Source: Candidatus Omnitrophota bacterium (GTDB lineage: Bacteria > Omnitrophota > Gorgyraeia > JAFGGP01). Taken from it: 49,206 nucleotides of DNA. Location of the stretch: the NCBI GenBank assembly GCA_016930485.1, contig JAFGGP010000040.1:1-49206 (forward strand). Direction: 5' to 3'. Of this stretch, positions 2,218 through 41,988 are shown in pieces. The position numbers were made by a program, and so were the translations under genes. Numbering within the stretch: the first letter of the stretch is position 1; each line of letters starts with the position of its first letter. The notes below the pieces were generated by a model that ran no database searches, was not told where the DNA came from, and saw only the letters and a program-made list of their open reading frames with translations.

Positions 2218-2329
2218 ATATCCTGTAAGACAATGTGTTACAATAGGACAATTATACAATGAAGATTCTGCGTTGTTCCGCGTCAGTTTCTGCGCGATTC
2301 AGCGCACACTAAGAGCGAAGCGAGTTAAC

Positions 2330-3430
2330 TTGAACAAAAGTTTCCTCCAGGCAGAGATTAAAGTCCCCGAATTCCTGAAAAGGAAAAGGGCCAATTTCAA
2401 GGAATTGGTGCAATTTACCCGCCAGGCGGCTACCCTGGTGCGGGCAGGCCTTCCTCTGGTCAGGTCCCTCGATACACTGCATGAACAACTGGATAAGGGC
2501 TATTTAAAGGAGTGCGTCGGCACGATTGCCGAAGAGGTAAAGAGCGGCACCGCATTTTCAGAGGCGTTGTCTCACTACCGGACTGTCTTCCCGCCGTTAT
2601 ACGTAAATATGGTGCGGGCAGGAGAACAGGGCGGTATGCTTGAGGAGATTCTTAAGCGTCTTGCCGATTTTCTGGAGAAACAGGAGCGGCTCCGCACCCG
2701 CATTAAGAGCGCCCTGATGTACCCTATTTTTGTGCTTGGCGTAGCAATTCTCATCCTGGTGGTGCTGATGATTTTTGTTGTCCCTACGTTTACCAAGATG
2801 TTCGAGGATCTGGGAGGGGCGCTGCCGCTGCCGACGATGATTTTGATCGGGATCAGCGATCTCTTTCGTTACCGGTGGTACTGGGTTGTGGCCGCGATTG
2901 CGGCGGTGATTGGTCTGGTGAAGCTGACGGCGAGGCTTCTCGGCAAAAGCAGATGGGATTATTGTGTGGATAACATCAGACTGCATCTTCCTGTCTTCGG
3001 CGAGCTGATCCGGAAGGCCGCTATCGCGATTTTTGCCCGCACCCTCGGCACGCTCCTGACGAGCGGTGTCTCGATTTTGAACGCACTGGATACCGTGAAG
3101 GAGATTGCGGGTAACGAGATTGTGAAACGGGGTATCGGCGAGGTGCGGGAGAGCATCAAGGAGGGCGAGAGTGTCTCAGGGCCCCTTTCGCGGTGCAAGG
3201 CCTTTGATCCTATGGTGGTCAAGATGGTTGCTATTGGCGAGGAGACAGGACAGCTCAACAAGATGCTGGTTGAGATTGCCGCAAGCTATGAAGAGGAGGT
3301 CGATGTTATGGTCAGCGGCCTTACCGCGCTCCTTGAGCCGCTTCTTATTGTTTTTCTGGGCCTGGTTGTCGGTTTTATCGTCATAGCGATGTTTCTGCCT
3401 CTCTTTTCCATGGCACGGCTTATTGCATAG
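2330..3430 (+). CDS. gspF: Type II secretion / type IV pilus inner-membrane platform protein (GspF/PilC family)
   Basis: FKELVQFTRQAATLVRAGLPLVRSLDTLHEQL...; T2SSF repeats with TM segments and C-terminal ...EEEVDVMVSGLTALLEPLLIVFLGLVVGFIVIAMFLPLF. Start uncertain (ORF opens at TTG 2273; TTG 2330 preferred). Confidence 0.9.
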   Translation: MNKSFLQAEIKVPEFLKRKRANFKELVQFTRQAATLVRAGLPLVRSLDTLHEQLDKGYLKECVGTIAEEVKSGTAFSEALSHYRTVFPPLYVNMVRAGEQGGMLEEILKRLADFLEKQERLRTRIKSALMYPIFVLGVAILILVVLMIFVVPTFTKMFEDLGGALPLPTMILIGISDLFRYRWYWVVAAIAAVIGLVKLTARLLGKSRWDYCVDNIRLHLPVFGELIRKAAIAIFARTLGTLLTSGVSILNALDTVKEIAGNEIVKRGIGEVRESIKEGESVSGPLSRCKAFDPMVVKMVAIGEETGQLNKMLVEIAASYEEEVDVMVSGLTALLEPLLIVFLGLVVGFIVIAMFLPLFSMARLIA

Positions 3431-3546
3431 TCCATGTCACATGACACAGGACACATGACACAGGTGACAAAAACTCTAAACACAAAACCCGAAACTCTAA
3501 ATAAACTCAAATGCCCCACATTCAAAACCCAAAACAACTGCTGTAT

Positions 3547-3706
3547 GTCATTGCGCACCCCGATGCGAGATCCAGAAAAAAATGGATCCCCGGGTCAAGC
3601 CCGCCACTTCTGGTGAGACCTCGTTCACCTATAGGCGAGACCTCGCGAAAGCGGGAATCCAGGGAAAAATAAAGAGATAGATTCCGGATCAAGTCCGGAA
3701 TGACAG
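3547..3706. repeat. dispersed palindromic repeat, copy 1 (GTCATT...ATCCAGAAAAAAATGGATCCCCGG...AATGACAG)
   Basis: Shares atccagaaaaa(t/a)a(g)atggatccccgg and inverted GTCATT/AATGAC ends with 4884-4976. Confidence 0.65.
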
Positions 3707-3788
3707 AAATGGCAAGATAGAAGGAAAAATTTTTGTACTTTGATTTAAAAACTGGTGACTGGTGTCATGGTGACCTGGTAACTTGACA

Positions 3789-4163
3789 ATGAAAAAAGAA
3801 AAAGGTTTCACCCTCATAGAAATTGTTATCGCCCTGGGCATCCTGGTCATCGGCGTCGTTGGCCTGATGCAGGTATTTCCTGTCGGCCTCCAGGCGAGTA
3901 ATATGTCGGGGATAAAAAGTGATGCGGCCCTCCTTGCCCAGAAGCTGCTCGACGAGGCAAAACTCATGGGTGTCGATCACATTCCTCAATCAGTCCAGGA
4001 GGGCAGGTTTACCTGCGCATTTTCTAAGGAGGAGGTAACGCTTGAGGGTTCTACGCTGAACGAGCCCCATCTGCACACACCGTATAAGATAAGCCTGACG
4101 ATGCACTGGACAGAGCGCAGGCGCCTGCGCAGCGAGACATTTGTGACGTACATGCTTGAATAA
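3789..4163 (+). CDS. Type II pseudopilin, GspI/PilV-like
   Basis: Prepilin motif MKKEKG|FTLIEIVIALGILVIGVVGLMQV; ATG 3789 preferred over TTG 3783. Confidence 0.85.
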   Translation: MKKEKGFTLIEIVIALGILVIGVVGLMQVFPVGLQASNMSGIKSDAALLAQKLLDEAKLMGVDHIPQSVQEGRFTCAFSKEEVTLEGSTLNEPHLHTPYKISLTMHWTERRRLRSETFVTYMLE

Positions 4164-4167
4164 TATC

Positions 4168-4815
4168 ATGATAAACACTATAGAGTCACCAAGACACAAT
4201 GTCACAAAGTCACCAGAAAAAACTGGTGTCCTGGTGACCTGGTGTCCTGGCGACCTTACAAGGAAGAAGAATGGTTTTACCGTCCTAGAAGCATTGATCG
4301 CCCTGTCGATTATCGCGGTCATCATCACCTCAACCTTTATGATTTTTAAGGGCGCGACAAATTCGTGGAGACACGGAGAGGCCCGGGCGCACGTCTATCA
4401 GACGGTCCGTTCCGTATGTGATATCGTCATCCGCGATGTGTCTCAGGCGGCGACCGCCAAGGGACTGGGGCCGGTGGCCGATGCCCCGTTATTCTCCGGG
4501 ACGACCGATTCTATGTTGTTTGTTACCCCGATGGGGGACAGCAGAGAGCTTATTGAGGTGTCCTACCGGCTGGAGGAGGGTCGCTTTAACCGGAGGGCCG
4601 CTGAGACGATAGACGGGGATCCCGAGACGTGCGACTATAACGAGGATTTAAGCGATGAGATAGATGAGGTTCAATTTGCCTATCTGGCCGACGGCCAATG
4701 GCAGGTGAGCTGGAACAGCGCTGTCACGAAACGATTGCCGCAGGCGGTGAAGATGGACATTGTGTTACAGAAAGAACGTTTTGAGATTATTATCAAGATA
4801 GAAGCGGTAAACTAA
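4168..4815 (+). CDS. Type II pseudopilin, GspJ-like
   Basis: TRKKNG|FTVLEALIALSIIAVIITSTFMIFKGATNSW; long leader encoded in a palindromic repeat; exact start uncertain. Confidence 0.8.
   Translation: MINTIESPRHNVTKSPEKTGVLVTWCPGDLTRKKNGFTVLEALIALSIIAVIITSTFMIFKGATNSWRHGEARAHVYQTVRSVCDIVIRDVSQAATAKGLGPVADAPLFSGTTDSMLFVTPMGDSRELIEVSYRLEEGRFNRRAAETIDGDPETCDYNEDLSDEIDEVQFAYLADGQWQVSWNSAVTKRLPQAVKMDIVLQKERFEIIIKIEAVN
4185..4254. repeat. palindrome of GTCACC/GGTGAC-type short repeats around an A6 loop
   Basis: gtcaccaagacacaatgtcacaaagtcaccag-aaaaaa-ctggtgtcctggtgacctggtgtcctggcgac; related motifs at ~111-122 and ~3753-3783. Confidence 0.75.
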
Positions 4816-4883
4816 CCGCGTAATAACAAATGACGAATTCCAAATTTCAAATGAATCACCTAATTCCAAATGACAAAAAGAAT

Positions 4884-4976
4884 CTGTCATTCCCACGGGG
4901 CCTGTCCCGTACCCCGATACGGGACGGAAATCCAGAAAAATAGATGGATCCCCGGATCTTCGCCTAAGGATGACAG
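4884..4976. repeat. dispersed palindromic repeat, copy 2
   Basis: CTGTCATTC ... GGATGACAG ends; internal atccagaaaaatagatggatccccgg matches copy 1; flanked by inverted CAAATG/CATTTGG arms. Confidence 0.65.
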
Positions 4977-5052
4977 AATTTTTTTAGAGTATTTGATGAT
5001 TTGGATTTCATTTGGATTTTGACATTTGGATTTTGGGATTCTATGAATTTTT

Positions 5053-8000
5053 ATGAATTCAAAAAAAGGTATTGCCCTTATTATCGTCCTGAGCGTTCTT
5101 GCGGTGGCAAGCATTATCGCCATAAGTTTTTTATTTACTATGCGGCTTGAGGAGCACGCCGCCTCAAATTTTCTCAATACCATAAAAGCACGGTATATTG
5201 CCGAGATGGGCGTGGTGCATGCGCGCCGGCTGCTTGAAGAAGACAGTTTTCTGGACCGCGACCGGTGGGTAAGCGCCTCGGAAACGATCGGGCTGGGTTA
5301 CGACGGATATAACGAGAGCTGGCACGAGCTCTTTACAGGAAGCGATGTCGACGTAGACGGAGACGGCACCCCGGAAAGCAGATGGATTCCGGTGGAAGGA
5401 GGCACCTTTTCCGGCAGGTATGCCGTGCTGGTGAGCGATGAGGCGGGTAAGCTTAATTTGAATATGCCGCGCTCCGATATTGTCAGGGACGGCATTGCCA
5501 GTATCTTTACCGCATGCTCAAGCGGGGGTGCTCAGATGTCGCAGGCGACCGACGCGCTTTTTGCATACCGGTACGGCCCCGATAAAAAACCCGGCGTCGC
5601 CAGGCGGGACGACGACTTTGATAATGTCCTGTTGACCAATGACGGTATCGATAATGATGGCGACGGCCATATAGACGAGGCAGGCGAGGGCATTGATGAA
5701 GACAATGAATTTCTTCCGGCTCATCCGCGCGGCGATGACGCGGCCTTTAGCGTGCTGGAGAGATATAAAACCGCTGCACGAATAAGCGATGACCTCTGGG
5801 CTAGGGTGCGCCCTTTCTTAACCGTTTATTCACAGAGCGACAACCTTGATATGTGGGGTCTCCCGAGGATTAATATCAACAATGTCTCGGCAGAGGAGCT
5901 CGTTGAAATTTTAAAATCAACGGGGTTTGACAATCCGTGGCAGATCGCCGTCAACATTGCCGATTTTATTGATGATGATTTTGTAAAGAGCTCTGTGGTA
6001 AAGGCGACGAGGGGCTGTTCGGTCAAGGCCTGTTTTACCTACGATCTTGGCAGCTGGGAATTTGTGGGAGGGCATTACCGCTGCCTTAGACCGGGCGGAT
6101 TGCCGGGTGTCTGGCAATGGCAGGGGGTCCCCCCCGGTGATTATTACGTCAAGGTCTACGGGTATGGAGAAAACTCTAAGGTAGGCGATGTGACTATTAA
6201 CGGGGTCGTGCATCCGGATATGGAACATGATGATCTCTTCGGGCTTTTTGCCAGGGAGAAGGTAACGGTTGCCGAGGATACAATCTTACAGGTTGAGGTC
6301 CAGAACAATTTCGGGGCAGAGACGACCACTTATTTTTCCGGGGTCGAACTTATTCCGGTACGAGGGGGCGGCACTATTAGACCGCGTCTGGTGTACGGGA
6401 TCGAGGGGGTGCGTATTAATGAGATTATGGTGAAGCCGGTTTTGAATAAGTCAACCGAACATATGCAGCCGGGCGGGTACTGGACTGCCTCGGGAGGCGG
6501 TTTTGTCAATAATACAGCCGGAAGCGGGGCAAAGGGCGAGGGCACATGGGAATGGACCGGTATTCCCGACGGCAAATACTATCTCTATGTGTACGGCCAG
6601 AGCGGTCAGGCGGTAGGTGATGTGAGGGTAGAGGGGGTAACACAGGGGCACATGACAGACGGGGGCAGGTTTTCGGCGAAGAGCGCCGTCTCGGTATACG
6701 GCGGGCGGCTTCGCATATCGATCCAGAATAACGAACCCGAGGGGGTAAGCTGTTACTTTTCGCGCATCGAACTTTCCCAGCAGCCTGACGGCGAGTATAT
6801 CGAGCTGGTCAATCTTACCGAACGTGAGGTGGATATCGGTGGCTGGATTGTCGAAGGAACCGGATACAGCGGATGGCCGGCGCGTATCCCGCTGGGCACC
6901 GCCATCGAACCGAACGGTTTCATCGTCCTTGCGATGGATGCGGACGACAAGACGACGGGCCTTTCCGGCAACGGCATTTCCTTTGATACCATATGGGGGG
7001 CGCGGGACAAGAACGTGGTGGGGCTTGATTTTACCCGGGCCGTAACCCCGGACGATGATCTGTTGCGCGATGTCCCGCTGTCTGGCTATAATATGATTAC
7101 TCTGCGGGACAGCAGTGAAAATTTGGTGGACGCGGCCGAGTATTCAAATACGACCCCGTATATCGCCTCTGAGAAGGGCGACCCCTCCTATAACGGCGAT
7201 ACCGACGGTGACGGGGCCGACGAGATATGGTATAACAGCCTCTCCTTGAGCAAGGGGACTCCCGGAGAAGAGAATAATAATACCGGCATGAAGGAGAGGT
7301 TGTGGAAGGATGACCAGTGGATGACTATTATTCACTCATCCGATGAAATTCTCTTTCGCAATTATCCTCTGTTTGATCTGGGCACCTTACTGTCTGTACG
7401 CCGGTCTGATGAATTTTGGAGGGCTCTTGCACTCGAAGAGGTGATGAAATGTATTGATGCATTCACCACAGAAGGAATCCGCCTCGAGAGCGAATGCGCA
7501 AAGCCATCCGATAATGAAGGACGCGGCAACGGATGGGTTGCCGTTGATCGTCCGGAACCAGCCACTGCCTGGTTTGAGAGCGGCGCTCTCGATGACGTGG
7601 GGTACTGGAGGTGGACCGGTGAGGACGGTGTGACGAACGGCGTCTATTCATTAAGCATTTTTGGCAGACAGGGCGAGTCGGTCAGCATCTCGGTGAGGCG
7701 CACCGGCGGAGGCTGGAGTCCCTGGACGCCGGCGTTGACCTATGGTGTCGGCAATAAGATATATTTCGGAAGGGTAGAGATAGGAACGGGCAGTGAAGGC
7801 GCCTCGCCTGATTCGACGCTTGAGGTGCGACTTAAAAATACATCCCCTAAGGGCGTGGCCCATTTTGATTACCTGAGACTCGACCCTTCTTCGGAGAAGT
7901 CCGGGGCGATCAATATTAATACCGCCTCTCAGGCGGTCCTTGAGGCATTGCCCGGTATTGACTCCGGGTATGCGGCGAGAATAATGCAAAACAGGCCGTA

Positions 8001-8238
8001 CGGCAACAAAGAAAATAAGCGAAGGGGGATCGGCGATCTTCTGGTCGGGGATGTCCTGCGGCCGCTAGAGTATGAGGATGAAGCGGATAAAGAACGTCAG
8101 ATGTTGGGATTATTCGGGGCATTTTCCAATTATGTCACCGTGCGTTCGGACACCTATGGTATTACGGTTATCGGCCAGATTGTCAAAAGGGATAAGATTC
8201 AGGCAGAGAAACGGATCGAAACCATTATCGAAAGGTAA
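5053..8238 (+). CDS. Very large GspK-like minor pseudopilin with internal lamin-tail-like domain and repeated beta-rich modules
   Basis: N-terminal MNSKKGIALIIVLSVLAVASIIAISFLFTMRLEEH; HhH-like ININNVSAEELVEILKSTGFDNP and AININTASQAVLEALPGIDSGYAARI; LTD-like EYIELVNLTEREVDIGGWIVEG...IPLGTAIEPNGFIVLA. Confidence 0.8.
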   Translation: MNSKKGIALIIVLSVLAVASIIAISFLFTMRLEEHAASNFLNTIKARYIAEMGVVHARRLLEEDSFLDRDRWVSASETIGLGYDGYNESWHELFTGSDVDVDGDGTPESRWIPVEGGTFSGRYAVLVSDEAGKLNLNMPRSDIVRDGIASIFTACSSGGAQMSQATDALFAYRYGPDKKPGVARRDDDFDNVLLTNDGIDNDGDGHIDEAGEGIDEDNEFLPAHPRGDDAAFSVLERYKTAARISDDLWARVRPFLTVYSQSDNLDMWGLPRININNVSAEELVEILKSTGFDNPWQIAVNIADFIDDDFVKSSVVKATRGCSVKACFTYDLGSWEFVGGHYRCLRPGGLPGVWQWQGVPPGDYYVKVYGYGENSKVGDVTINGVVHPDMEHDDLFGLFAREKVTVAEDTILQVEVQNNFGAETTTYFSGVELIPVRGGGTIRPRLVYGIEGVRINEIMVKPVLNKSTEHMQPGGYWTASGGGFVNNTAGSGAKGEGTWEWTGIPDGKYYLYVYGQSGQAVGDVRVEGVTQGHMTDGGRFSAKSAVSVYGGRLRISIQNNEPEGVSCYFSRIELSQQPDGEYIELVNLTEREVDIGGWIVEGTGYSGWPARIPLGTAIEPNGFIVLAMDADDKTTGLSGNGISFDTIWGARDKNVVGLDFTRAVTPDDDLLRDVPLSGYNMITLRDSSENLVDAAEYSNTTPYIASEKGDPSYNGDTDGDGADEIWYNSLSLSKGTPGEENNNTGMKERLWKDDQWMTIIHSSDEILFRNYPLFDLGTLLSVRRSDEFWRALALEEVMKCIDAFTTEGIRLESECAKPSDNEGRGNGWVAVDRPEPATAWFESGALDDVGYWRWTGEDGVTNGVYSLSIFGRQGESVSISVRRTGGGWSPWTPALTYGVGNKIYFGRVEIGTGSEGASPDSTLEVRLKNTSPKGVAHFDYLRLDPSSEKSGAININTASQAVLEALPGIDSGYAARIMQNRPYGNKENKRRGIGDLLVGDVLRPLEYEDEADKERQMLGLFGAFSNYVTVRSDTYGITVIGQIVKRDKIQAEKRIETIIER

Positions 8239-8310: not shown

Positions 8311-10086
8311 ATGAAAAAATCGCCCTTTTTTATGAAAAGCGGTATCGCACTGGCCTTGTGGATAGGCTGCACACTCTTTTCTCTTTCCGTTCCTTGCCGG
8401 GCAGATGACGTGAAACAAACGCATTTTGCCTCAGCCTCTGATGAGAGTGAATCAGATGAATACGCAGGTGCCGGTGCGGTAGGGAGTCCGGTTATCGGAT
8501 CCGCAGCGAGTCAGGGCTATAAACTGAATATCGGACCGATGGCAACCAGGAATATCAGTCCCACCACAACTATTATCAGCCCCAATCAGGGGCTTCCGAT
8601 TCAGGATGAGACCCCGACCTTGCGATGGTCTTATTTTGATGCGGAGAGCGACCCGCAGCGGATGTTTCAGATCCAGATTTCCAAAGACAATTTTCAGACC
8701 ATTGCCTATGACAGCGGATTTATATCGTCAGGCGGATTTTCCTATACGACGCCTATTTTGTCAAAGAATGAACCGGCTACCGTATACAGGTGGCGCGTCA
8801 GGACGCACGATGGATACGACCTATCGGGGTGGGTTGCCGCCAATAACGGATTCCGGGTCAGCGGCGAGGTTTTTGATATTGCCGTCCTCGATGCCAGACA
8901 GTGGGCTACCGGCCCTTCGATTATGCCGGAGAGGTGGCAAACCGACAATGACCCGTATTTTTGGTGGGAACCTCCTTCAGAGGGGAAGGGGGTTGCCGGA
9001 TACAGCTACGCTATTGACGAGCTCCCCGATGACATCGTGGATATAACGGCCACCTCCATACAACTGGATGAAGATGCCCTGCTGGATGGCAGACATACCT
9101 TTTACGTAGCCGCAAGCAATACGGCCGGCAACTGGGGTAGTCCCGCCGCATTTTCTCTCTGGGTCGATACGGTACCGCCGTCGGTAGTCGCCTTTGGTCC
9201 GGCAGAGGGCAGAATCATCGATAACGACAAACCGAGAATTTTTGTGAGGGTGTATGATGTGAACAGCGGCGAAGACGGAGAAACCGCGACATTGAAGATT
9301 AATGGTTCCAGCGTTGAGTTTGAGTATAATCAGGATGCCCACGAATTTTCCTTTGTGCCGACAACGCCGCTTCGCGAGGGAGAAAATGCCGTTTCGTTCA
9401 GCATCCGGGATTATGTCGGTAACGAGATTATTCCCTTTATATGGGGATTTATTGTGGACACCGAAGGCCCTGCCGGCTCGGTAGTTATTAATGATGGCGA
9501 CGAAATGACCACCTCGGTATATGTCAGACTTACGATTCGGGCGGATGACTTTACCTCCGCAGTCACCGCGATGAGCATTTCCAACGACGGTATCTTTGAT
9601 ACCGAGAGGTGGGAGGCGTTGGCGCCCTACAAGGATGATTGGATGCTCGAGCCGACAAGCGGCGTCAAGAAGGTATGGATCAAATTTCGGGATAGCGCCG
9701 GCAACGAATCCGAATCTGTTTTCGATGCGATTCTGTTAGTTATTAAGGCACCGGATACCTATATTACCTCAGGTCCGTCCGGCTCTGTCAGTACCGGTAC
9801 GGCACACTTTACCTTTGCGGCATCGAAGGAAGGGTGCCTGTTTTCCTGGTCATTCGACGATGAGGCCTGGTCTGACTGGCAGGGCGTCCAGGATGCAACG
9901 AAAGATAGCCTTGAAGAGGGGAATCATTATTTTCGTGTCCGGGCCGCCGTTGACGTTAACGGCAACACGATTATCGATCCGGATGAGATTGACCCGGTGC
10001 CGGCCTCACGAACCTGGGTAGTTGGGACTCAGGCGCCAGAAGTTGCCCCTCAGGAAGGGGAGATTAAGATCTGGAAGATAGAGTAA
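8311..10086 (+). CDS. Secreted/surface protein with Fn3/Ig-like repeats and an EF-hand-like loop
   Basis: Signal peptide; TPTLRWSYFDAESDPQRMFQIQISKD..., DTVPPSVVAFGPAEGRIIDNDKPRIFVRVYD...; C-terminal DVNGNTIIDPDE. Confidence 0.7.
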   Translation: MKKSPFFMKSGIALALWIGCTLFSLSVPCRADDVKQTHFASASDESESDEYAGAGAVGSPVIGSAASQGYKLNIGPMATRNISPTTTIISPNQGLPIQDETPTLRWSYFDAESDPQRMFQIQISKDNFQTIAYDSGFISSGGFSYTTPILSKNEPATVYRWRVRTHDGYDLSGWVAANNGFRVSGEVFDIAVLDARQWATGPSIMPERWQTDNDPYFWWEPPSEGKGVAGYSYAIDELPDDIVDITATSIQLDEDALLDGRHTFYVAASNTAGNWGSPAAFSLWVDTVPPSVVAFGPAEGRIIDNDKPRIFVRVYDVNSGEDGETATLKINGSSVEFEYNQDAHEFSFVPTTPLREGENAVSFSIRDYVGNEIIPFIWGFIVDTEGPAGSVVINDGDEMTTSVYVRLTIRADDFTSAVTAMSISNDGIFDTERWEALAPYKDDWMLEPTSGVKKVWIKFRDSAGNESESVFDAILLVIKAPDTYITSGPSGSVSTGTAHFTFAASKEGCLFSWSFDDEAWSDWQGVQDATKDSLEEGNHYFRVRAAVDVNGNTIIDPDEIDPVPASRTWVVGTQAPEVAPQEGEIKIWKIE

Positions 10087-10821: not shown

Positions 10822-12393
10822 ATGATAAAAAGCATAGGACTGGATATTGCGGGTGACAGCATACGGATAGTTGAGTGCACCCAGGACAAAAAAGATATCA
10901 CTATATCGCGGGTGGGCGCATTGAAACTTGTCCAGAAGGTAGGGGTGAGCGGCGATGATATCTTGCATAGCGGCATCAATACCCTCCTCAAGGAGCTCTC
11001 GATTAAGAATAGGAGGGTCAATTTCGCCATGCCGGGTTCTTCGGCATTTGTGCGAACCAGCAAGATCCTCGTGAGTGAGAGGAGGCGCCTCGAAGAGATG
11101 GTGAGGCATGAGGCGATCCAGACCATCCCGTTTAATCTGGAGGAGGTGGCGTGGGACTATTTTTTAACCAAGGATTTTAACGATGCGGTAAAGGGGTCGC
11201 GAATTCCCCAGGAGGTCGAACTTGTCCTTGTCGCCGTTAAAAAAGACCTGATCGAACAGAAAAGGCGTCTGATAGAGACTGCCGGGGTTTCGGTAAGCCG
11301 GGTAAGCACACGTCCGCTAGCGGCGTATACCTGTCTGCAATTTTCCGGAAAACGGGCGGCCGATACACATAGACTGTTTGTCGAAGTGGGCCTGAATTAT
11401 ACCGATATTGTGCTGGGGAGAGGGAAGGACGTGTGGGTGCGCAGTCTACCGTTCGGCCTACCGGAAGACCTATCTTCGGTCCAGGATGCGAAGTTACGCA
11501 GCTGGATTGGTGAGGTGAAAAGGGCCTGTGAATTTTATTTTATGGAACGCTTTCCGGAACAATCATCGGGTATTGCGCAGGTGCTGAAGGAGCATATTCA
11601 ATACGTTGATCTGGCAGGGCCCGCCGGCGCAAGTCCGGAGATCTCGGCGTTATTCAAAGAGGTTTTCGGAAAGGAGGCCGCACTCTTTAACCCCTTTGCG
11701 GTAGCGCCCCTTTCTAAAGAAGCCGAAAGCGTTGTAGCACGCAAGGCCCTTCCCGAGCTTTCGACATTCGCCGCCTGCCTGGGGCTGGCGCTGTCTCGAC
11801 TGGGCCCGGACGAAAGTGCCATTAATCTCTATAAGGATTCGCTGAGCAGCCGGAGACAGAGCTTTGAAAAAAGGCTTTATACTACCCTTGCATACTGTTG
11901 TGGTTTTGCTATTGTGGCAAGTGCGGCCTTTCCGCTGGGAGGGGATATACAGGTAAAAAGGGAACTCCTCGCCGATTTAGAGGGGATGCTTTCCGAAGCG
12001 CGCTCCTATCGCCCGAAGATTATCCGTCTTACCGAGCAACGCAATCTGACAAAGGAGAAGGTAAATACCCTCTACTCTATCGCCATCAATCGCGGTATAT
12101 GGCTCGATATCCTGAACGGACTTAAGGAATCGCTCCCAGGCGATGTCTGGATTACCGAACTGGACGGCACCAAAGAGGCCTCCGGGCAGCTGGTTGCCGA
12201 GCTCACCATCAAGGGAAACGGCCCTTCATACGAACAGATCAATAAATTAGTCAGCGCCCTAAAGCTATCGAGGTATTTTGAGGATGTAAAACCTGTTTCT
12301 TCGTCGGTTGTGCGGGTAGACGATGCCGAGGTAGTCGAGTTTACTATTACCATGGGGGTCAAGGGAAAACAGTTCTGGGATAAGCAGGGGTAA
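10822..12393 (+). CDS. Type IV pilus assembly PilM-PilN fusion protein (GspL-like)
   Basis: PilM-like IGLDIAGDSIRIVECTQ... and VRHEAIQTIPFNLEEVAWDYF; then TM LAYCCGFAIVASAAFPLGG and PilN-like WLDILNGLKESLPGDVWITELDG...VSALKLSRYFEDVKP. Confidence 0.8.
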   Translation: MIKSIGLDIAGDSIRIVECTQDKKDITISRVGALKLVQKVGVSGDDILHSGINTLLKELSIKNRRVNFAMPGSSAFVRTSKILVSERRRLEEMVRHEAIQTIPFNLEEVAWDYFLTKDFNDAVKGSRIPQEVELVLVAVKKDLIEQKRRLIETAGVSVSRVSTRPLAAYTCLQFSGKRAADTHRLFVEVGLNYTDIVLGRGKDVWVRSLPFGLPEDLSSVQDAKLRSWIGEVKRACEFYFMERFPEQSSGIAQVLKEHIQYVDLAGPAGASPEISALFKEVFGKEAALFNPFAVAPLSKEAESVVARKALPELSTFAACLGLALSRLGPDESAINLYKDSLSSRRQSFEKRLYTTLAYCCGFAIVASAAFPLGGDIQVKRELLADLEGMLSEARSYRPKIIRLTEQRNLTKEKVNTLYSIAINRGIWLDILNGLKESLPGDVWITELDGTKEASGQLVAELTIKGNGPSYEQINKLVSALKLSRYFEDVKPVSSSVVRVDDAEVVEFTITMGVKGKQFWDKQG

Positions 12394-12399
12394 TGCCAT

Positions 12400-13122
12400 A
12401 TGGCAAAGGTCATAAGCAGCATCGTATTATTTTGCGCCGGGTGCTATTTTGTCATAGCGCAGCCGGTGCTGTCGCATGTGCAGGGGCAGAGGATGACCGA
12501 TACGATCGAGACCGATAAAAAAATGGTAAAGCGGTTTCTGCTCGAGGGTGATATAGTGCCGTCCCGCCAGCTGTATCAGCAGATAGAGGCAGAACAGGAG
12601 GCCTTTGAGGGGTACGGGGCCCAGCTGAGGAAGTTTCTCGATCCCGGCTTCAAAAGTCTTCCCCGCGGCTCCGAAAGCGGACTGTATTTCCGGGAGGCGC
12701 TTTTTGCCCTTGAAAAGAAACTGGATAGAGAGGCAAAGGGGGCCGGGATCGAAATTCCGAAGTCTCTGGGGTTCGGGACAGAGTTGCCCCCGGTTAGTGA
12801 GGTGCCCCGCCTGTTAAAGCAGCTGACTTTAGTGGAACAGGTGGTCACGTCTTTTATTTCCGAGGGGGCAACAGAGATAAGCGAAATACAATTGCTGGAG
12901 CTTCCGGCGGTTGATGGGCAGAATTTTGAAGAGGTTCCGGTTGAGGTGCGGGCGGTGGTTTCTCACGGAGGGCTGTTGCGCGTTCTCTACGCCCTGAACA
13001 CGGCTCAGCCTGCGGTTGATATCAGGACCCTGCGGGTAAAACGGCTGGATACATTACTGGAGGTAGACCTGACGGCGTCGGTATTTTTATTTAACGAGGC
13101 AGCCAGCGAGACAAAACTATAA
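12400..13122 (+). CDS. PilO/GspM-like (Amuc_1100-like) pilus assembly protein
   Basis: N-terminal TM and helical region; C-terminal EVRAVVSHGGLLRVLYALNTAQPAVDIRTLRVKR; position after PilMN. Confidence 0.55.
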   Translation: MAKVISSIVLFCAGCYFVIAQPVLSHVQGQRMTDTIETDKKMVKRFLLEGDIVPSRQLYQQIEAEQEAFEGYGAQLRKFLDPGFKSLPRGSESGLYFREALFALEKKLDREAKGAGIEIPKSLGFGTELPPVSEVPRLLKQLTLVEQVVTSFISEGATEISEIQLLELPAVDGQNFEEVPVEVRAVVSHGGLLRVLYALNTAQPAVDIRTLRVKRLDTLLEVDLTASVFLFNEAASETKL

Positions 13123-13131
13123 GAGCGGACG

Positions 13132-13635
13132 ATGAAAGAGAAACTGATATTCTGGGTTCTGGTACCTTTGTTGATAGGGGTGATTATGTATAAAATCTAC
13201 GAGTTTAAAGATGCCGGAGATATTTCGCCCCAGCTTATGAAAGAGCAGGAGACGATAAAACAGATGAAACGCACACAGCTTCCCAAGGCCCCCGAGCTTG
13301 ATCTGGCTGCTGCCCAGGGCGTGCGGCCGTTTACCGACTACGCGCACCTTATTCAGGAGGGCCCCTTTTTTCCGGTCGTCGTCGAAGGCGAGAAGCCCGC
13401 AATGAAAGAGATAATAAAGGTGGAACTGCTTCCGCGGAAGACCGTTTTTATCTATCGCGGCATCTCCGTGGTGAAGGGGCGTGAGGTGGTGGCACTTGAA
13501 TCGGCCGATGAGGGGGAGGTATTTTTTGTCGGTGTAGGAGACGAGATTAATCAATACACCGTTACCGATATTACCGATATGGAGGTTATCATTACGGATG
13601 GCGAGGAAGATATATCTATTAAGCGAATTGAATGA
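13132..13635 (+). CDS. PilP/GspC-like periplasmic protein
   Basis: N-terminal TM, then small beta-rich domain; located between PilO-like protein and secretin. Confidence 0.45.
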   Translation: MKEKLIFWVLVPLLIGVIMYKIYEFKDAGDISPQLMKEQETIKQMKRTQLPKAPELDLAAAQGVRPFTDYAHLIQEGPFFPVVVEGEKPAMKEIIKVELLPRKTVFIYRGISVVKGREVVALESADEGEVFFVGVGDEINQYTVTDITDMEVIITDGEEDISIKRIE

Positions 13636-13636
13636 T

Positions 13637-16600
13637 ATGGGCCGCGTGATGAGGGGTTGCTGCGTTATGTCCATGCTCATTTGGTGCATCGTGGGCAGTG
13701 CGGGTATATCCCTATTGTGCACCTCTACCGCCTTTGCCGGAAGCAGCTATGAGGAAGAGGCCTTTGAAGAAGCAAAGGCAGAGGCAGAGGCATTATTTCA
13801 GGAAGCAAAGATTCTTCTTGAACAGCAGCGGTTTAATGAGGCGCAGGACCGTTTGATCGAGGCCTTGGGATTATATCCCGGCCACCGGCTTGCCAGAATT
13901 TACCTTGAGCAGCTCGATCGCATTATCGAACAGGGTGTAACTATTCCCACCAGCGATGTAAAGCATAAGATCAGCCAGGAAGAGAAAAGACAGGCGGTGT
14001 TTGAGCCGAGTACCCTTGATGCGCGACAGATACGTTCTCTGTATAACAGGGGCCGATATCTGTATAAGGAAGGTGATTATCCTTCGGCTATTGCCATGTT
14101 TCAAAAGATCCTCGAGGTAGAGCCGGATCACAGAGGGGCATCGCGATATCTAAAGAAGGCGCTTGAGGAGACCGGGGCGGATGTGGCGGCTTTACCGGAA
14201 AGGCGGCCGACCCAGGAGAGAGAAGGCGGCTTTTCTTTAGATGTCGGATACAACCAACCGGCAGCAATACAGACGTCCGTAGCGACAGAGACACCAGAGG
14301 ATGAGGCTGAAAGGATCAAGAGGGCGGCGGAGGAAAAGGCCCTCAGGGCACAGATGGATCTTTACGCCGAACTGTTACAGAAAGGACAGGATGCCTTTGA
14401 CGGGGGTCAGTACGGTGAGGCGATAGGTCACTTTGAGGCTGCCTTGGAAGTTGTTCCTGATTCGGCGGCAGCACGCGAATATATACGGATTGCCCGGGCA
14501 AAACAACTTGCCGCCGAGCACCACCGGGAAGAGACGAAGCCGCTCGATGAAACAGAGACCTCGCAGGTCGGCATCAGCGCGCGGCCGGTGTATACGACGG
14601 CGGCAGCGCCGAAGCAGGAGGCGGAGTATCTTGCCAGGGAGAAAGCGGAGATACGGAAGGCCTTGTTAGACAAGGAGATTCAGCTACACTATGAAAAGGG
14701 ACATGCTTTTCTAAATGAGGGGAACTATGGCGGGGCAATAGAGGAGTTTAAAAAGGTCATCCAGATTGATCCAACGGAGACCGAGGCGCAGAGTCTTCTT
14801 GAGAAGGCGAAAAAGACGCTTGAGAGGGATATGCAGAAGCAGTTGATCACCAAAAGGCGCGCAGAGAAAAAGGCCCTGGAGGTGTTAAGAGATCAGGATA
14901 AAGAGCGGATTGCCGAGGTACAGCGTATAGCGAAGGAAAAAGAAGAGGCCGAGATACAAAAACGGAAAGAAATCGAACAGAGAAAACGGGAAAGGATTAA
15001 GCAGCGGGAAGAAGAGATTAAAGAGACATCACGTATGAGAGAAGACCGTCTCAAGCAGTTACTTGCCAATGCGAAGTTTCTGTACGACGAGGGAGAATAC
15101 GACAAGTCGCAGGCCTTTATCGACGCCCTCCTTGAGGAGGACCCGAACAATCAGAAGGCCGTCGATTTTGCCCACATGCTCAGGCTTGCAAAGGTAGACC
15201 GGGAACAGGAGGAGTATGAAAAGGAGATCGAAGTAACCGATCAGAAGATGCTGCTTGAGGTAACAAAGAAAAACCTGATTCCCGATGAGTATATCGGCGA
15301 CGGCGACGAAGGGGAGGCGCCCGAGAAGGGTGCGGATAAGACGGTAGATTACCACCGATTGCCTTCACAGAGGGGCGCTACTCATCAGCCGTCAAAGATA
15401 CGCAAACAGCTTGATCAACTGGTGACGCTCGATTTTAAGGATGTCGATTTAATCAGTGTGCTCAACTATCTCTCTGATGTGACCGGCATTAATGTGGTTC
15501 CTTCAAGCGCCATCGCGCTTGAGGAGTATAAGGCGACTATCCGGGTAAAGAATATGCCGTTTAAGGACGCGCTCAGGTATCTCCTGAAGAGTTTGGGGCT
15601 CACCTACCGGATCGATGAGGATGCCATATGGGTTGCGACGCCCGACGATATAAAAAACGAAAAGATAGAAACAAGGGTGTATTCGCTCAATAAAGGCATT
15701 CACGCGACGGCAAAGTTGTCCCAGTCCGCGGGTGCCGCAGTTGTCGGCCTTGGGGATTCGCAATCATTGCCCGAGGTCACGACGATAAAGGATCTTCTGC
15801 AGGAGGCGGTGGATTTTCCCAAGGGTTCAAATCTGGTGCTGGACGAGAGGACGGGCTCGTTGATTGCAACCAATACCCCGTCCAATCTTCAGATCGTCGA
15901 AGATATCCTCACCAATCTTGACACGACACCTATCCAGATTCTCATCGAGACCCGCTTCATCGAGGTCAATATGTCCGACCTTGAGCACTTTGGGTTTGAC
16001 GCGAAACTCAATAGCGATTGGGGGCTAACCAGGAGGAATGTGCCCGATGGCAACAAGGTGCAGGTGGACCAGGATAGCGGGGTCAACTTTTCATCGTTTT
16101 CTGCCAGGGGGGACGAGGGGTTCAACCTGACCTTTCGCGGCGTGTTGACCCATCCGCAGTTCGAGCTCGTACTCCATATGCTTGAGGAAGAGACAAAGGC
16201 ACACACGCTTTCCGCCCCCAAGGTTACGACGTTAAACAATCAAACGGCCACTATTCAGGTCGTCGATGATTTTATCTACCCGACGCGGTACGAAATTTCG
16301 TTTGTGCCGCAGGACGACGATGGGGACGGTCAGATAGAGCAGGGTGAAGGAGAATTTCTGAACCTGCCCCAGGATTTTGTCACCCGCAAGGAAGGGATTA
16401 TTCTCAAGGTAACGCCGACCGTCGGCATGGACCAGGAGACCATCACCCTGTCGCTGGTGCCGGAGGTGAGCGATTTCTCCCAGTACGATAACTTCGGCGG
16501 CGGGGTAACGCTTCCCCGCTTTACCTCACGCAGCCTTACGACGAGCGCCATTATTAAAAACAATGAAACGGTGGTATTGGGCGGCCTGATCAAGGAGACA

Positions 16601-16783
16601 AATACCAATGCGGTAACGAAGGTGCCGATTCTAAGCAAACTTCCTCTCATCGGAAAGGCATTTCAGAAAAAGATAGACAACGTGGAGCGGCGCAATCTCC
16701 TTATTTTTGTTACGGCGCGCATTATCAATAATCAGCAGAATAGGCAACCGCAACCGGCTCGCGATAAAGGATCGGTGCTGTAA
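13637..16783 (+). CDS. Secretin with N-terminal TPR/coiled-coil extension (GspD/PilQ family), copy 1
   Basis: Signal peptide, TPR repeats, N-domain LDFKDVDLISVLNYLSDVTGINVVPSS, secretin core TLSAPKVTTLNNQTATIQV...NNETVVLGGLIKETNT...VPILSKLPLIGKAFQKK. Confidence 0.9.
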   Translation: MGRVMRGCCVMSMLIWCIVGSAGISLLCTSTAFAGSSYEEEAFEEAKAEAEALFQEAKILLEQQRFNEAQDRLIEALGLYPGHRLARIYLEQLDRIIEQGVTIPTSDVKHKISQEEKRQAVFEPSTLDARQIRSLYNRGRYLYKEGDYPSAIAMFQKILEVEPDHRGASRYLKKALEETGADVAALPERRPTQEREGGFSLDVGYNQPAAIQTSVATETPEDEAERIKRAAEEKALRAQMDLYAELLQKGQDAFDGGQYGEAIGHFEAALEVVPDSAAAREYIRIARAKQLAAEHHREETKPLDETETSQVGISARPVYTTAAAPKQEAEYLAREKAEIRKALLDKEIQLHYEKGHAFLNEGNYGGAIEEFKKVIQIDPTETEAQSLLEKAKKTLERDMQKQLITKRRAEKKALEVLRDQDKERIAEVQRIAKEKEEAEIQKRKEIEQRKRERIKQREEEIKETSRMREDRLKQLLANAKFLYDEGEYDKSQAFIDALLEEDPNNQKAVDFAHMLRLAKVDREQEEYEKEIEVTDQKMLLEVTKKNLIPDEYIGDGDEGEAPEKGADKTVDYHRLPSQRGATHQPSKIRKQLDQLVTLDFKDVDLISVLNYLSDVTGINVVPSSAIALEEYKATIRVKNMPFKDALRYLLKSLGLTYRIDEDAIWVATPDDIKNEKIETRVYSLNKGIHATAKLSQSAGAAVVGLGDSQSLPEVTTIKDLLQEAVDFPKGSNLVLDERTGSLIATNTPSNLQIVEDILTNLDTTPIQILIETRFIEVNMSDLEHFGFDAKLNSDWGLTRRNVPDGNKVQVDQDSGVNFSSFSARGDEGFNLTFRGVLTHPQFELVLHMLEEETKAHTLSAPKVTTLNNQTATIQVVDDFIYPTRYEISFVPQDDDGDGQIEQGEGEFLNLPQDFVTRKEGIILKVTPTVGMDQETITLSLVPEVSDFSQYDNFGGGVTLPRFTSRSLTTSAIIKNNETVVLGGLIKETNTNAVTKVPILSKLPLIGKAFQKKIDNVERRNLLIFVTARIINNQQNRQPQPARDKGSVL

Positions 16784-18312
16784 TGAATCACGGGAATGCA
16801 GGTATTCTGTCCGGAATATTCAGAAGGATTGCAGGGGAGTGCGCCCTTATCTGTTTTTTTATTGCTACCTGCCTGATTCTTCCGTATCCCTGCCGCTCCG
16901 AAGAGGAGATTGCGGTGCCGAAGACCCCCCTGGTGCAGATCCCGGAAATACGCAAAAGGCTGCAGCAACCGGTTGCGGTGGATTTCCGGGACGTCGATCT
17001 CGTCAGCATCCTCAATTATCTCTCGGACGTAACCGGTGTTAACATCATCCCCTCTGCCAGCGTCATGAAGGAGAAGTACAAGGCCACGATCAAGGTCAAG
17101 GATATGCCGCTTGAGAATGTGCTGAAGTACCTGCTCTATGGTCAGGAACTGGATTACCGCGTTGAAGAGAATGCGGTATGGGTAGCCACCCCCGCGGAGA
17201 TCGAAAAGGAGGCCGTTGAGACGCGCATCTATTTTCTTAATATGGGTGTCGGCATGTTTACCGAATTTTCCGGGGGGGCGAGCGCCGAGGGATCGGCAGA
17301 GCTCGGCACCGGCGGCGGGGGCATCTCGAAGATATTGACCATAAAAGATATTCTTGAAGAGGCGGTCCCCTTTTCCGGAGAGAGCAAGATTGCACTTGAT
17401 GAACGCACCGGTGCGCTGATTATATCGAATACCCCCAAAAATCTGAAGATCATCGAGGATATTATGTATAACCTCGATATTACTCCGATACAGGTCCTGA
17501 TCGAGGCCCGTTTTGTGGAGGTGAAGATGACCCCGACGGAAGAAAAGGGCCTTGAGCTTAAGCTGAGCGATGACGGAGAAGGATGGGGGATTACTCAGCG
17601 CGAAACGCTTGGAAACATAACGCAGATTGACCCGGGAAGCGGTGTCAATTACAGCACCTTTAATAATGCATCGGAGGGATTTAATCTGACGTTGCGGGGG
17701 GTATTAACGCACCCGCAGTTCGAATTTTACCTCCATTCGCTAGAGACGGTAACCACCACTAAGACGCTTTCAGCGCCCAAGGTTTCGACCCTCAACAATC
17801 AGACAGCCACCATTCAGGTGGTCGACGAGTTTATCTATCCGACCAGATACGAGGTGACGCTGGTGCAGTTTGATAAAAACGGGGACGGAGATTTTGACGA
17901 TGCCGGCGAAACCGAGTTTGCGAACGTGCCAAAGGATTTTGTGACTAAGAACGTCGGCATCGTACTGCGGGTAATCCCCAATGTAGGAAACGACAGGGAG
18001 ACGATTACCCTGACCCTATCTCCTGAGGTGAGCGATTTTTCGGCGCTGAAGTCCTTTTCCGGGGATATCAGTCTTCCCGAATTTTCCACAAAGAGCATAT
18101 CGACAACGGTGGTCATGAATAGCGGAGAAACGGTGGTCTTGGGCGGTCTGATGGACGAGACAAATACCCAGACGGTCACCAAGGTGCCCCTTCTGGGCAA
18201 TATCCCGCTTTTAGGAAATCTTTTCAGGAAGGAAACAGAGTCGTCCCAGCGCCGCAATCTCTTGATATTTGTCACAGCGACGGTTATGGATGCAACAGGC
18301 ATCTCTTCATAA
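16783..18312 (+). CDS. Secretin (GspD/PilQ family), copy 2, without TPR extension
   Basis: Paralogous to the preceding ORF: VDFRDVDLVSILNYLSDVTGVNIIPSA...TLSAPKVSTLNNQTATIQVVDEFIYPTRYEV...GETVVLGGLMDETNT...VPLLGNIPLLGNLFRKE; TAATG overlap with upstream gene. Confidence 0.92.
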   Translation: MNHGNAGILSGIFRRIAGECALICFFIATCLILPYPCRSEEEIAVPKTPLVQIPEIRKRLQQPVAVDFRDVDLVSILNYLSDVTGVNIIPSASVMKEKYKATIKVKDMPLENVLKYLLYGQELDYRVEENAVWVATPAEIEKEAVETRIYFLNMGVGMFTEFSGGASAEGSAELGTGGGGISKILTIKDILEEAVPFSGESKIALDERTGALIISNTPKNLKIIEDIMYNLDITPIQVLIEARFVEVKMTPTEEKGLELKLSDDGEGWGITQRETLGNITQIDPGSGVNYSTFNNASEGFNLTLRGVLTHPQFEFYLHSLETVTTTKTLSAPKVSTLNNQTATIQVVDEFIYPTRYEVTLVQFDKNGDGDFDDAGETEFANVPKDFVTKNVGIVLRVIPNVGNDRETITLTLSPEVSDFSALKSFSGDISLPEFSTKSISTTVVMNSGETVVLGGLMDETNTQTVTKVPLLGNIPLLGNLFRKETESSQRRNLLIFVTATVMDATGISS

Positions 18313-40256: not shown

Positions 40257-41975
40257 ATGCCCTCGTTTAACGAACGCCTACAGGAGATACTGCTCGAAAG
40301 AGGGATCGTTACCCCCGAGCAGATGGAAGAGGTGCTGCAGCATCAGAGGCGCTTTAACTGCAGCTTCAAAGAGGCATTTTGCCGGTCGACGATTCTTACC
40401 GAAAAAGAACTTATGGCCGTGATCGCTGAGGAACTCAATACCCCTCTTATTGATCTTTCGAAGCTAAAGATAGACCCTGCCATTGCGAATATTCTCCCCG
40501 AAGAAATTGTCAGAAAATATCAGGTGGTTCCGATCGCAAAGATGGGCGGGTCATTAACCGTTGCAATGAGTGACCCGTTGAATATCTTTGCCCTTGATGA
40601 TATTGCGGCGATGACAAAGATGCGTCCCACCCCGGTCATTGCCACGCAGGCAGACATCAATACTGCAATCGATCAGCTCTATACGCTTCCGGCCAACGAG
40701 GCCATCGAAAAGATTGTCGAGAATATCCGGGAATCCGAACTCGAGCTTATTGCCATGGCCGAGGCACCGGACACCGAAATCCTGTTTAAGGACATTACCC
40801 AGGAGCCGATTGTCAAACTGGCTGCAAAAATTTTGGAGAACGCTATTCTCCAGCGGGCCTCGGATGTGCTGATAGAGCCTCTCGACCGCGAGACGAGAAT
40901 CCGCTACCGGATCGACGGTATTCTGTACGAACACAGAACCCTTGCGCGGACTATTCACGACGCGCTTGTCTCGCGTTTTAAGGTAATGAGCGAGTTGGAT
41001 ATTGCCGAACGGAGGCTGCCGCAGGAGGGACGTTTCAAGGCCCGTTTTTTGGAGAGAGAGGTTGACTGCAGGGTTTCGGTCTTGCCGTCGATCAAAGGCG
41101 AAAATATGGCTATCCGCCTTCTTGACAAAACCGTCGCAACCCTTGACATTGAGAAGTTGGGGTTCGGCGAACATAACATTGCTGTTCTAAAAGACTGCGT
41201 CGATCGGCCTCACGGCATGATACTGGTCTGCGGTCCTACCGGAAGCGGAAAGACGACAACCCTCTACTCGCTCCTTAAAATTGTCAATTCACCGGAGATT
41301 AATGTAGTTACCGTTGAGGAACCCGTTGAGTATCAGCTGGAGGGCGTCAATCAATCGTCGATCAATACGGATATCGGATATACCTATGCGCGGGCGTTAC
41401 GGTCTATTTTGCGTCAGGATCCCGAGATTATTATGGTGGGTGAGATCAGGGATTTCGAGACCGTGGATATCGCAATCAAGGCGGCATTGACCGGACACCT
41501 CGTTTTAAGCACACTTCACACGACTACGGCGCCAGGGTCTATTACCCGCCTGATTAATATGGGGGTTGACACCTTTCTGATCAACGCAACCGTGACGGCT
41601 ATTGTCGCACAGCGGCTTCTGCGGGAGCTATGCCCGCACTGCAAAACGCCTTATACGCCGCGGGGCGCTATTCTTGAGAAGTTTAAGGTTGCTACCGGTG
41701 AACGCACGGAGGAGCTGAACTTTTTTCATCCGAAGGGATGTTCGCGCTGTTTTCATAGCGGTTACTTTGGGCGTATCGGCATCGCCGAGATTCTGGTTTT
41801 GACACCCTCTATCCGCGAGGTCATTAGCAGGAAGCCCCAGGAGCTCGAGATTAAGAGGATAGCGCGAAAAGAGGGCATGATGACGTTGCGGGAGGCGGCC
41901 ATCAGACATGTGATAAACGGTGTTACCTCGCTCGAGGAGGCACTGCGTCTGACAGCGCCTGATGAGCAGCAATAG
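40257..41975 (+). CDS. Type II secretion/type IV pilus assembly ATPase (GspE/PilB family), copy 1
   Basis: Walker A CGPTGSGKTTTLYSLL; RSILRQDPEIIMVGEIRDFETVDIAIKAALTGHLVLSTLHTTTA; CPHC...CSRC. Confidence 0.95.
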   Translation: MPSFNERLQEILLERGIVTPEQMEEVLQHQRRFNCSFKEAFCRSTILTEKELMAVIAEELNTPLIDLSKLKIDPAIANILPEEIVRKYQVVPIAKMGGSLTVAMSDPLNIFALDDIAAMTKMRPTPVIATQADINTAIDQLYTLPANEAIEKIVENIRESELELIAMAEAPDTEILFKDITQEPIVKLAAKILENAILQRASDVLIEPLDRETRIRYRIDGILYEHRTLARTIHDALVSRFKVMSELDIAERRLPQEGRFKARFLEREVDCRVSVLPSIKGENMAIRLLDKTVATLDIEKLGFGEHNIAVLKDCVDRPHGMILVCGPTGSGKTTTLYSLLKIVNSPEINVVTVEEPVEYQLEGVNQSSINTDIGYTYARALRSILRQDPEIIMVGEIRDFETVDIAIKAALTGHLVLSTLHTTTAPGSITRLINMGVDTFLINATVTAIVAQRLLRELCPHCKTPYTPRGAILEKFKVATGERTEELNFFHPKGCSRCFHSGYFGRIGIAEILVLTPSIREVISRKPQELEIKRIARKEGMMTLREAAIRHVINGVTSLEEALRLTAPDEQQ

Positions 41976-41988
41976 TAGAGAGAGATAT

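What the first reader, a model, noticed from the sequence alone, without database searches (positions are those of the whole stretch)
5053..8238. Oversized GspK-like pseudopilin with a lamin-tail-like domain and a thrice-repeated module
GspK proteins are usually ~300-350 aa; this ORF is 1061 aa. Between the N-terminal pseudopilin helix and the C-terminal HhH-like tail are an LTD-like segment (EYIELVNLTEREVDIGGWIVEGTGYSGWPARIPLGTAIEPNGFIVLAMD) and three related beta-rich modules (VWQWQGVPPGDYYVKVYGYGENSKVGDVTINGV; TWEWTGIPDGKYYLYVYGQSGQAVGDVRVEGV; YWRWTGEDGVTNGVYSLSIFGRQGESVSISVR). The pseudopilus tip may carry an adhesin or substrate-recognition head.
Basis: partly seen in the sequence, partly recalled or inferred. 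Interest (0 to 1): 0.66.

Follow-up and report, generated by a model that had tools for sequence, protein, structure and literature searches.

The report
Giant secretion-tip protein with sugar-binding-like head
In uncultured Omnitrophota bacteria, the protein that should cap the tip of a secretion piston has grown to three times its usual size by taking in three copies of a sugar-binding-like domain and a lamin-tail domain, so the tip probably grips a specific partner molecule; this is a well-conserved new variant of a known design.

Summary
Observation confirmed. ORF 5053-8238 (+, 1061 aa) is one intact GspK-type minor pseudopilin in a T2SS/type IV filament cluster of an Omnitrophota genome. 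It is neither an assembly artefact nor a frameshift fusion: full-length single-ORF homologs (about 910-1130 aa) occur across many families, and all 41 loci found among 84,980 species genomes are Omnitrophota.

The three modules are homologous (profile-profile E 1e-32, 1e-13, 1e-14). They fold as CBM6/35/36-like beta-sandwiches (AF2 pLDDT 96 for module 2; Foldseek top match CBM36) but match no CBM family by sequence. The lamin-tail domain is real and split: module 2 sits between its first and second strands, and excising it lifts the LTD score from 31.6 to 44.2 bits (cut-off 34.3). The head lies between GspK's helix/SAM-like core and its C-terminal HhH/T2SSK unit.

Most likely this is a tip subunit presenting a binding platform for that companion and/or a polysaccharide. 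Tip position and ligand are inferred. New variant of a known kind (modular pilins, ComZ).

The parts
5053..8238 (+). Giant GspK-type minor pseudopilin, 1061 aa
   Evidence: NF037980 GspK E 2.3e-15 (57 bits, cut-off 130); full-length homologs
5053..5250 (+). Class III leader (MNSKKG) and pilin helix alpha-1, residues 1-66; hydrophobic residue at mature position +5 instead of Glu
   Evidence: AF2 helix 3-66; position +5 is L/I/V/T in all 31 rows with sequence there
5344..5376 (+). Conserved acidic loop DVDVDGDGTPE (residues 98-108), calcium-binding type
   Evidence: D100/D104 in every member with sequence there; calcium role inferred from known GspK structures (PMC6211770)
5386..5991 (+). GspK pseudopilin strands plus SAM-like core, residues 112-313, with an acidic insert at 186-219 (5608-5709) that the most distant homologs lack
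   Evidence: NF037980 stretch covers residues 5-137; AF2; absence in L066/L067/L069; weak hmmsearch match to XcpX 5vtm_X E 0.16
6016..6372 (+). Module 1, CBM6/35/36-like beta-sandwich, residues 322-440
   Evidence: hhalign to module 2 E 1e-32; AF2 strands; naturally absent in L062
6409..6438 (+). Lamin-tail domain, first strand (VRINEIMVKP, residues 453-462)
   Evidence: joining it to the rest raises the LTD score 31.6 to 44.2 bits
6439..6783 (+). Module 2, CBM6/35/36-like beta-sandwich inserted in the LTD, residues 463-577
   Evidence: AF2 alone pLDDT 96.4, pTM 0.89; Foldseek best CBM36 1ux7, prob 1.00, TM 0.60/0.59, E 0.007
6784..7272 (+). Lamin-tail domain, remainder, residues 578-740
   Evidence: PF00932 hit 578-697; matched at E<0.01 by 34 of 34 members
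7273..7473 (+). Linking segment with short helices, residues 741-807
7474..7890 (+). Module 3, the most diverged CBM-like beta-sandwich, residues 808-946
   Evidence: hhalign to M2 E 1e-14 and to M1 1e-13
7891..8235 (+). C-terminal HhH/T2SSK unit and the last two long strands, residues 947-1061
   Evidence: HHH_3 and T2SSK over cut-off; AF2 strands 1034-1045 and 1048-1060
8311..10086 (+). Companion: secreted Ig-like protein, 591 aa
   Evidence: Big_13 E 2e-10, Ig_Rha78A_N 3e-5; conserved after GspK in many loci; co-occurrence; secretion inferred from a signal-like N-terminus
10066..10083 (+). Conserved C-terminal tail of the companion (KIWKIE)
   Evidence: tail conserved in relatives; in this genome the pattern with its stop codon occurs only here
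2273..3430 (+). GspF/PilC-type platform protein
   Evidence: T2SSF E 2e-65
3783..4163 (+). GspI/PilV-like minor pseudopilin (Glu5 present)
   Evidence: N_methyl; PilV and GspI models, below their cut-offs
4156..4815 (+). GspJ minor pseudopilin (Glu5 present)
   Evidence: T2SSJ E 2e-13
10822..13635 (+). PilM+PilN-like (10822-12393), GspM-like (12400-13122), unassigned small protein in the PilP/GspC position (13132-13635)
   Evidence: PilP/GspC role inferred from position only
13598..18312 (+). Two tandem secretins, the first with a long TPR N-terminus
   Evidence: Secretin E 4e-38 and 1e-40; Amuc_1098-like
40257..43728 (+). Two GspE/PilB-type assembly ATPases

Best explanation
The protein is the capping (tip) minor pseudopilin of a T2SS-like type IV filament, a modular GspK. 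Its N-terminal helix and the strands at both ends of the chain form the pseudopilin body. Between the SAM-like GspK core and the C-terminal HhH/T2SSK unit it carries a head of three CBM6/35/36-like beta-sandwiches and one lamin-tail domain, with the second sandwich nested inside the lamin-tail domain. It is laid down first when the filament assembles, with I and J below it, and the head binds a specific partner as the filament pushes outward. The best candidate partner is the co-inherited secreted Ig-like companion (8311-10086), possibly through its conserved C-terminal tail, and/or an exported or surface polysaccharide. Shown here: the architecture, module homology, nesting, conservation, gene order and companion co-occurrence. 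Inferred: tip location, calcium binding, that the companion is secreted, and that the head binds the companion or a glycan.
For: Architecture: Pfam/NCBIfam, AF2 of the whole chain with 34 homologs pLDDT 85.8, pTM 0.82, module alone pLDDT 96.4, Foldseek to CBM6/CBM36 prob 1.00, hhalign. Nesting: LTD 31.6 to 44.2 bits in the window protein and 38.2 to 49.8 in L031 after excision. [quoted passage not shown] Companion: 9 of 10 giant-GspK genomes have it at E<1e-80 and 0 of 49 others do (Fisher p 8e-10, not corrected for kinship). It is on a different contig from GspK in G004 and G038 and is present outside the GspK locus in L047, L066, L068, L069, L070, L055 and L063. Precedent: ComZ, a GspK-like tip pilin with an inserted head that binds DNA (PMC6561018); S. 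[quoted passage not shown] CofB carrying the secreted CofJ (PMC8179133).
Against: No binding, localisation or expression data exist. The modules match no CBM family by sequence, and similar folds also serve protein-protein contacts. The companion was not found in the L067 and L057 genomes, nor in G056 (60% complete). The companion tail differs in L056/L058. A head this large may not pass a secretin. NF037980 is well below its equivalog cut-off (57 vs 130 bits), although most GspK hits in this class are too.
Confidence: 0.6

Rival explanations
1. Surface adhesin: the head passes through the secretin and binds polysaccharide on other cells or particles, as in lectin-bearing modular pilins.
For: CBM6/36-like fold. 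Other GspK-like pseudopilins in the class carry PA14 or F5/8C domains, often glycan-binding. PilT-family ATPases over the cut-off occur elsewhere in the genome. Omnitrophota are proposed to attach to hosts or prey by pili (PMC10066038).
Against: The LTD is about as conserved as the GspK core (mean pairwise identity 0.38 vs 0.36) and module 2 nearly so (0.33), which fits a fixed partner better than variable host surfaces; modules 1 and 3 are more variable (0.30, 0.27). Whether a T2SS pseudopilus emerges is unknown.
Confidence: 0.3
2. Structural plug: the enlarged head only adds bulk, blocking passage through the unusually long TPR secretin or setting filament length, with no specific ligand.
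For: GspK is thought to limit pseudopilus length or passage (PMC5207764). The secretin is also enlarged (1061 aa with TPRs).
Against: Long-range conservation of the module fold, and co-inheritance with a specific secreted protein. In L062 module 1 is missing, so bulk is not fixed.
Confidence: 0.15
3. Artefact: an assembly join or frameshift fusing unrelated genes.
For: None beyond the unusual length and a few apparently frameshifted MAG copies.
Against: Independent full-length single-ORF homologs in many genomes from different samples.
Confidence: 0.01

Closest known systems
GspK/XcpX, T2SS tip minor pseudopilin (PDB 3CI0, 5VTM)
   Same: N-terminal helix without Glu5, SAM/HhH-like domain inserted in the pilin fold, acidic calcium-type loops, gene after I and J, largest of the minor pseudopilins (PMC5207764, PMC6211770)
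   Different: Over three times as long, with an extra head of about 620 residues holding one LTD and three CBM-like modules
ComZ of Thermus thermophilus
   Same: GspK-like pilin with a large beta-rich domain inserted in the chain rather than added at the end; proposed tip receptor (PMC6561018)
   Different: ComZ's head is a beta-solenoid that binds DNA; here it is CBM-like sandwiches plus LTD
Modular pilins PilB/PilC of Streptococcus sanguinis
   Same: Known domains grafted onto a pilin to bind ligands at the tip (PMC8179133, PMC9934059)
   Different: Grafts there are C-terminal additions (vWA, ConA-like lectin) on T4P pilins, not nested insertions in a GspK
CBM6/CBM36 carbohydrate-binding modules
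   Same: Beta-sandwich fold, Foldseek prob 1.00
   Different: No sequence match; ligand site not established
CofB-CofJ (tip pilin with secreted partner)
   Same: Minor pilin co-inherited with a secreted protein that it presents (PMC8179133, PMC10191384)
   Different: No sequence relation tested; pairing here is inferred from co-occurrence only

Membership tests
GspK family | Class III leader ending in Gly, hydrophobic residue instead of Glu at mature position 5 | tested here: met
   MNSKKG/IALII; +5 is L/I/V/T in all 31 aligned members with sequence there; I and J in the window have Glu5
GspK family | T2SSK/SAM-like (HhH) domain | tested here: met
   T2SSK 25.8 bits (cut-off 24.2) and HHH_3 28.4 (27) at 950-982
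GspK family | NCBIfam equivalog NF037980 over its cut-off (130 bits) | tested here: not met
   57 bits, E 2.3e-15; only 1 of 59 Omnitrophota genomes passes, so the cut-off is too strict for this phylum; called GspK-type, not the NCBI equivalog
[quoted passage not shown]
   window order F-I-J-K, conserved in relatives such as L046, L051, L060
GspK family | Located at the filament tip above I and J | not testable with these tools
   needs localisation or a complex structure
Lamin tail domain (PF00932) | Score over the gathering cut-off 34.3 bits | tested here: met
   31.4 intact, 44.2 with module 2 excised; several homologs pass unaltered, e.g. G053 41.1 bits
CBM6/35/36 superfamily | Beta-sandwich fold | tested here: met
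   Foldseek CBM36 1ux7 prob 1.00, TM 0.60/0.59, E 0.007; CBM6 2cdp E 1e-4 with the full model
CBM6/35/36 superfamily | Sequence membership in a CBM family | tested here: not met
   no Pfam CBM hit; PDB profile search best E 0.15 to an antibody
CBM6/35/36 superfamily | Carbohydrate binding | not testable with these tools
   no coordinates or binding data available
Modular pilins | Pilin moiety plus a domain not specific to type IV filaments | tested here: met
   LTD and CBM-like modules
Type II secretion system (cluster) | Secretin, platform protein, assembly ATPase and minor pseudopilins in one region | tested here: met
   but PilM/PilN and PilB-like parts make T2SS versus type IV pilus ambiguous, and no major pseudopilin was assigned with confidence

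The most novel reading that the evidence does not exclude
A dedicated tip-and-cargo pair: the giant GspK head is a docking platform for one co-inherited secreted Ig-like protein, whose conserved C-terminal tail is the docking tag, so that a T2SS-like filament in Omnitrophota carries a fixed effector or adhesin on its tip.
Probability: 0.3. Interest if true: 0.7.

Novelty: new variant of a known kind. Interest (0 to 1): 0.5.

Why it matters
[quoted passage not shown] A GspK that has kept an extra 620-residue binding-type head across many families of one phylum, with a co-inherited secreted partner and a candidate docking tail, gives a specific and testable protein pair. The nested insertion of a CBM-like module inside a lamin-tail domain is also unusual domain architecture. 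Omnitrophota are uncultured and thought to attach to hosts or prey, so surface and secretion machinery is of direct interest.

Tried and rejected
Artefact or fusion: rejected by full-length homologs. Sequence search of the module profile against PDB: no relevant hit. Excision test on the GspK model: only a small gain (57 to 61.5 bits; L031 65 to 68.6), consistent with the insertion but not decisive. Profile of the N-terminal core against PDB: XcpX only at E 0.16. Companion tail as a general secretion signal: not supported; in this genome the pattern occurs only on the companion. Modules as mobile domains in other proteins: not supported; in 237 Omnitrophota genomes every module hit lies in a long frame, nearly all 793-1096 aa, with two shorter ones on G224 contigs. 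One neighbour search failed on wrong coordinates and was repeated. Literature searches for a lamin-tail pseudopilin and for T2SS in Omnitrophota found nothing specific in the open-access set.

Full report
Observation. The ORF at 5053-8238 (+) encodes 1061 aa as described. Codon-position composition is even along it. Pfam finds LTD at 578-697 (31.4 bits, just under the 34.3 cut-off) and HHH_3/T2SSK at 950-982 (over cut-off); NCBIfam finds GspK at the N-terminus, E 2.3e-15 but under the equivalog cut-off.

Not an artefact. A search of 59 Omnitrophota-class genomes gave ten with full-length or near full-length copies in single open frames (987-1130 aa) from different families; aligned, they are 33-43% identical to the window protein. 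A scan of 84,980 species genomes with two conserved peptide patterns gave 41 loci, all titled Omnitrophota; pattern-based scanning misses distant relatives, so phylum restriction is provisional. In 237 genomes of the phylum, 25 carry the module, two of them outside the window's class. Three MAG copies look frameshifted.

Anatomy. AF2 on 34 homologs gives pLDDT 85.8 and pTM 0.82. In order: pilin helix 3-66; pseudopilin strands and SAM-like core to about 313 with acidic calcium-type loops; module 1 (322-440); LTD first strand (453-462); module 2 (463-577); LTD remainder (578-740); a linking segment; module 3 (808-946); HhH/T2SSK unit and two final long strands (947-1061).

Repeats and nesting. 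The modules are homologous: hhalign E 1e-32 (M1-M2), 1e-13 (M1-M3), 1e-14 (M2-M3), while modules against unrelated parts of the same protein gave 0.07-0.5. Single-sequence shuffles support M1-M2 and M2-M3 (0 of 2000) but not M1-M3 (43 of 2000), so module 3 rests on profiles. Module 2 alone folds at pLDDT 96.4; Foldseek gives CBM36 first (prob 1.00, TM 0.60/0.59, E 0.007), with CBM35 and CBM6 below, and the whole model gives CBM6 at E 1e-4. Excising module 2 raises LTD from 31.6 to 44.2 bits here and from 38.2 to 49.8 in L031, which is the evidence for a split domain. L062 lacks module 1 altogether, and L066, L067 and L069 lack the acidic insert.

Setting. The cluster is F-I-J-K-companion-PilM/PilN-GspM-like-small protein-secretin-secretin, with two GspE/PilB-type ATPases further on. 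Parts resemble the Amuc_1098-1101 set. The order recurs in relatives. The window protein is the only GspK hit in its own genome (89% complete), while other hits in the class are mostly about 260-420 aa. T2SS versus type IV pilus stays open: PilT-family ATPases over the cut-off occur on other contigs.

Companion. The gene 8311-10086 encodes an Ig-like protein (Big_13, Rha78A_N) with a signal-like start. Among 59 genomes it is present at E<1e-80 in 9 of 10 with the giant GspK and 0 of 49 without (Fisher p 8e-10, uncorrected for kinship). The tenth (G056) is 60% complete. In G004 and G038 the two genes are on different contigs. In the genomes of L047, L066, L068, L069, L070, L055 and L063 it is present although not seen next to GspK; it was not found for L067 and L057. 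Most companions end in a conserved tail of the form [KR]-x-W-[KRE]-x-[ED] (KFWKEE, KIWKIE, KLWRLE); L056 and L058 end differently and L033 and L051 run off their contigs. In this genome the DNA pattern for that tail plus stop occurs only here.

Conservation. Mean pairwise identity is 0.36-0.38 for the GspK core and helix, 0.38-0.44 for the LTD, 0.33 for module 2, 0.30 for module 1 and 0.27 for module 3. The LTD is thus about as constrained as the machine itself, while modules 1 and 3 are looser.

Mechanism. Established knowledge: GspK caps the K-I-J complex, lacks Glu5 and is encoded last among the minor pseudopilins (PMC5207764); T4 filaments assemble tip first (PMC10191384); pilins can carry inserted or grafted binding domains (ComZ, PMC6561018; PilB/PilC, PMC8179133 and PMC9934059). 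The window protein meets the sequence signatures. The inference is that its head is displayed at the tip and binds a conserved partner, the companion and/or a polysaccharide. A surface adhesin is the main rival, a purely structural plug a lesser one.

Novelty. Modular pilins are known (264 architectures reported in PMC8179133) and ComZ shows an inserted head in a GspK-like pilin, so this is a new variant, not a new kind. New here, as far as the held literature shows: LTD and CBM-like modules in a GspK, one nested in the other, fixed across a phylum with a co-inherited secreted partner.

Noticed in passing
L072-L082: A second family of oversized GspK-like pseudopilins (about 675-1032 aa) in other Omnitrophota genomes, with a different shared C-terminal block (SLKLGFWDDFD...); three of them (L072, L073, L074) have a PA14 domain where the others have the second T2SSK-type unit.
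   Followed up: partly
L030:1486-2298: Short pilin-like protein with PilX_N and an F5/8 type C (discoidin) domain.
   Followed up: no
window 8311-10086: Companion Ig-like protein with a conserved Trp-containing C-terminal tail, co-inherited with the giant GspK.
   Followed up: partly
window 13598-18312: Two tandem secretin genes, the first 1061 aa with a long TPR N-terminus, both related to the Akkermansia Amuc_1098 type.
   Followed up: no
window 3430-3783 and 4815-5052: Intergenic gaps with short degenerate direct repeats (e.g. CATTTGGATTTTGA x2, CATGACA x4); similar repeat-like sequence precedes GspK in L010.
   Followed up: no
window 45206-49206: Very long coiled-coil ORF running off the window end, with a 126-base tandem repeat at 47822-48051.
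   Followed up: no
L049, L068, L070: GspK copies split by apparent single frameshifts; two are in Lac Pavin MAGs.
   Followed up: no
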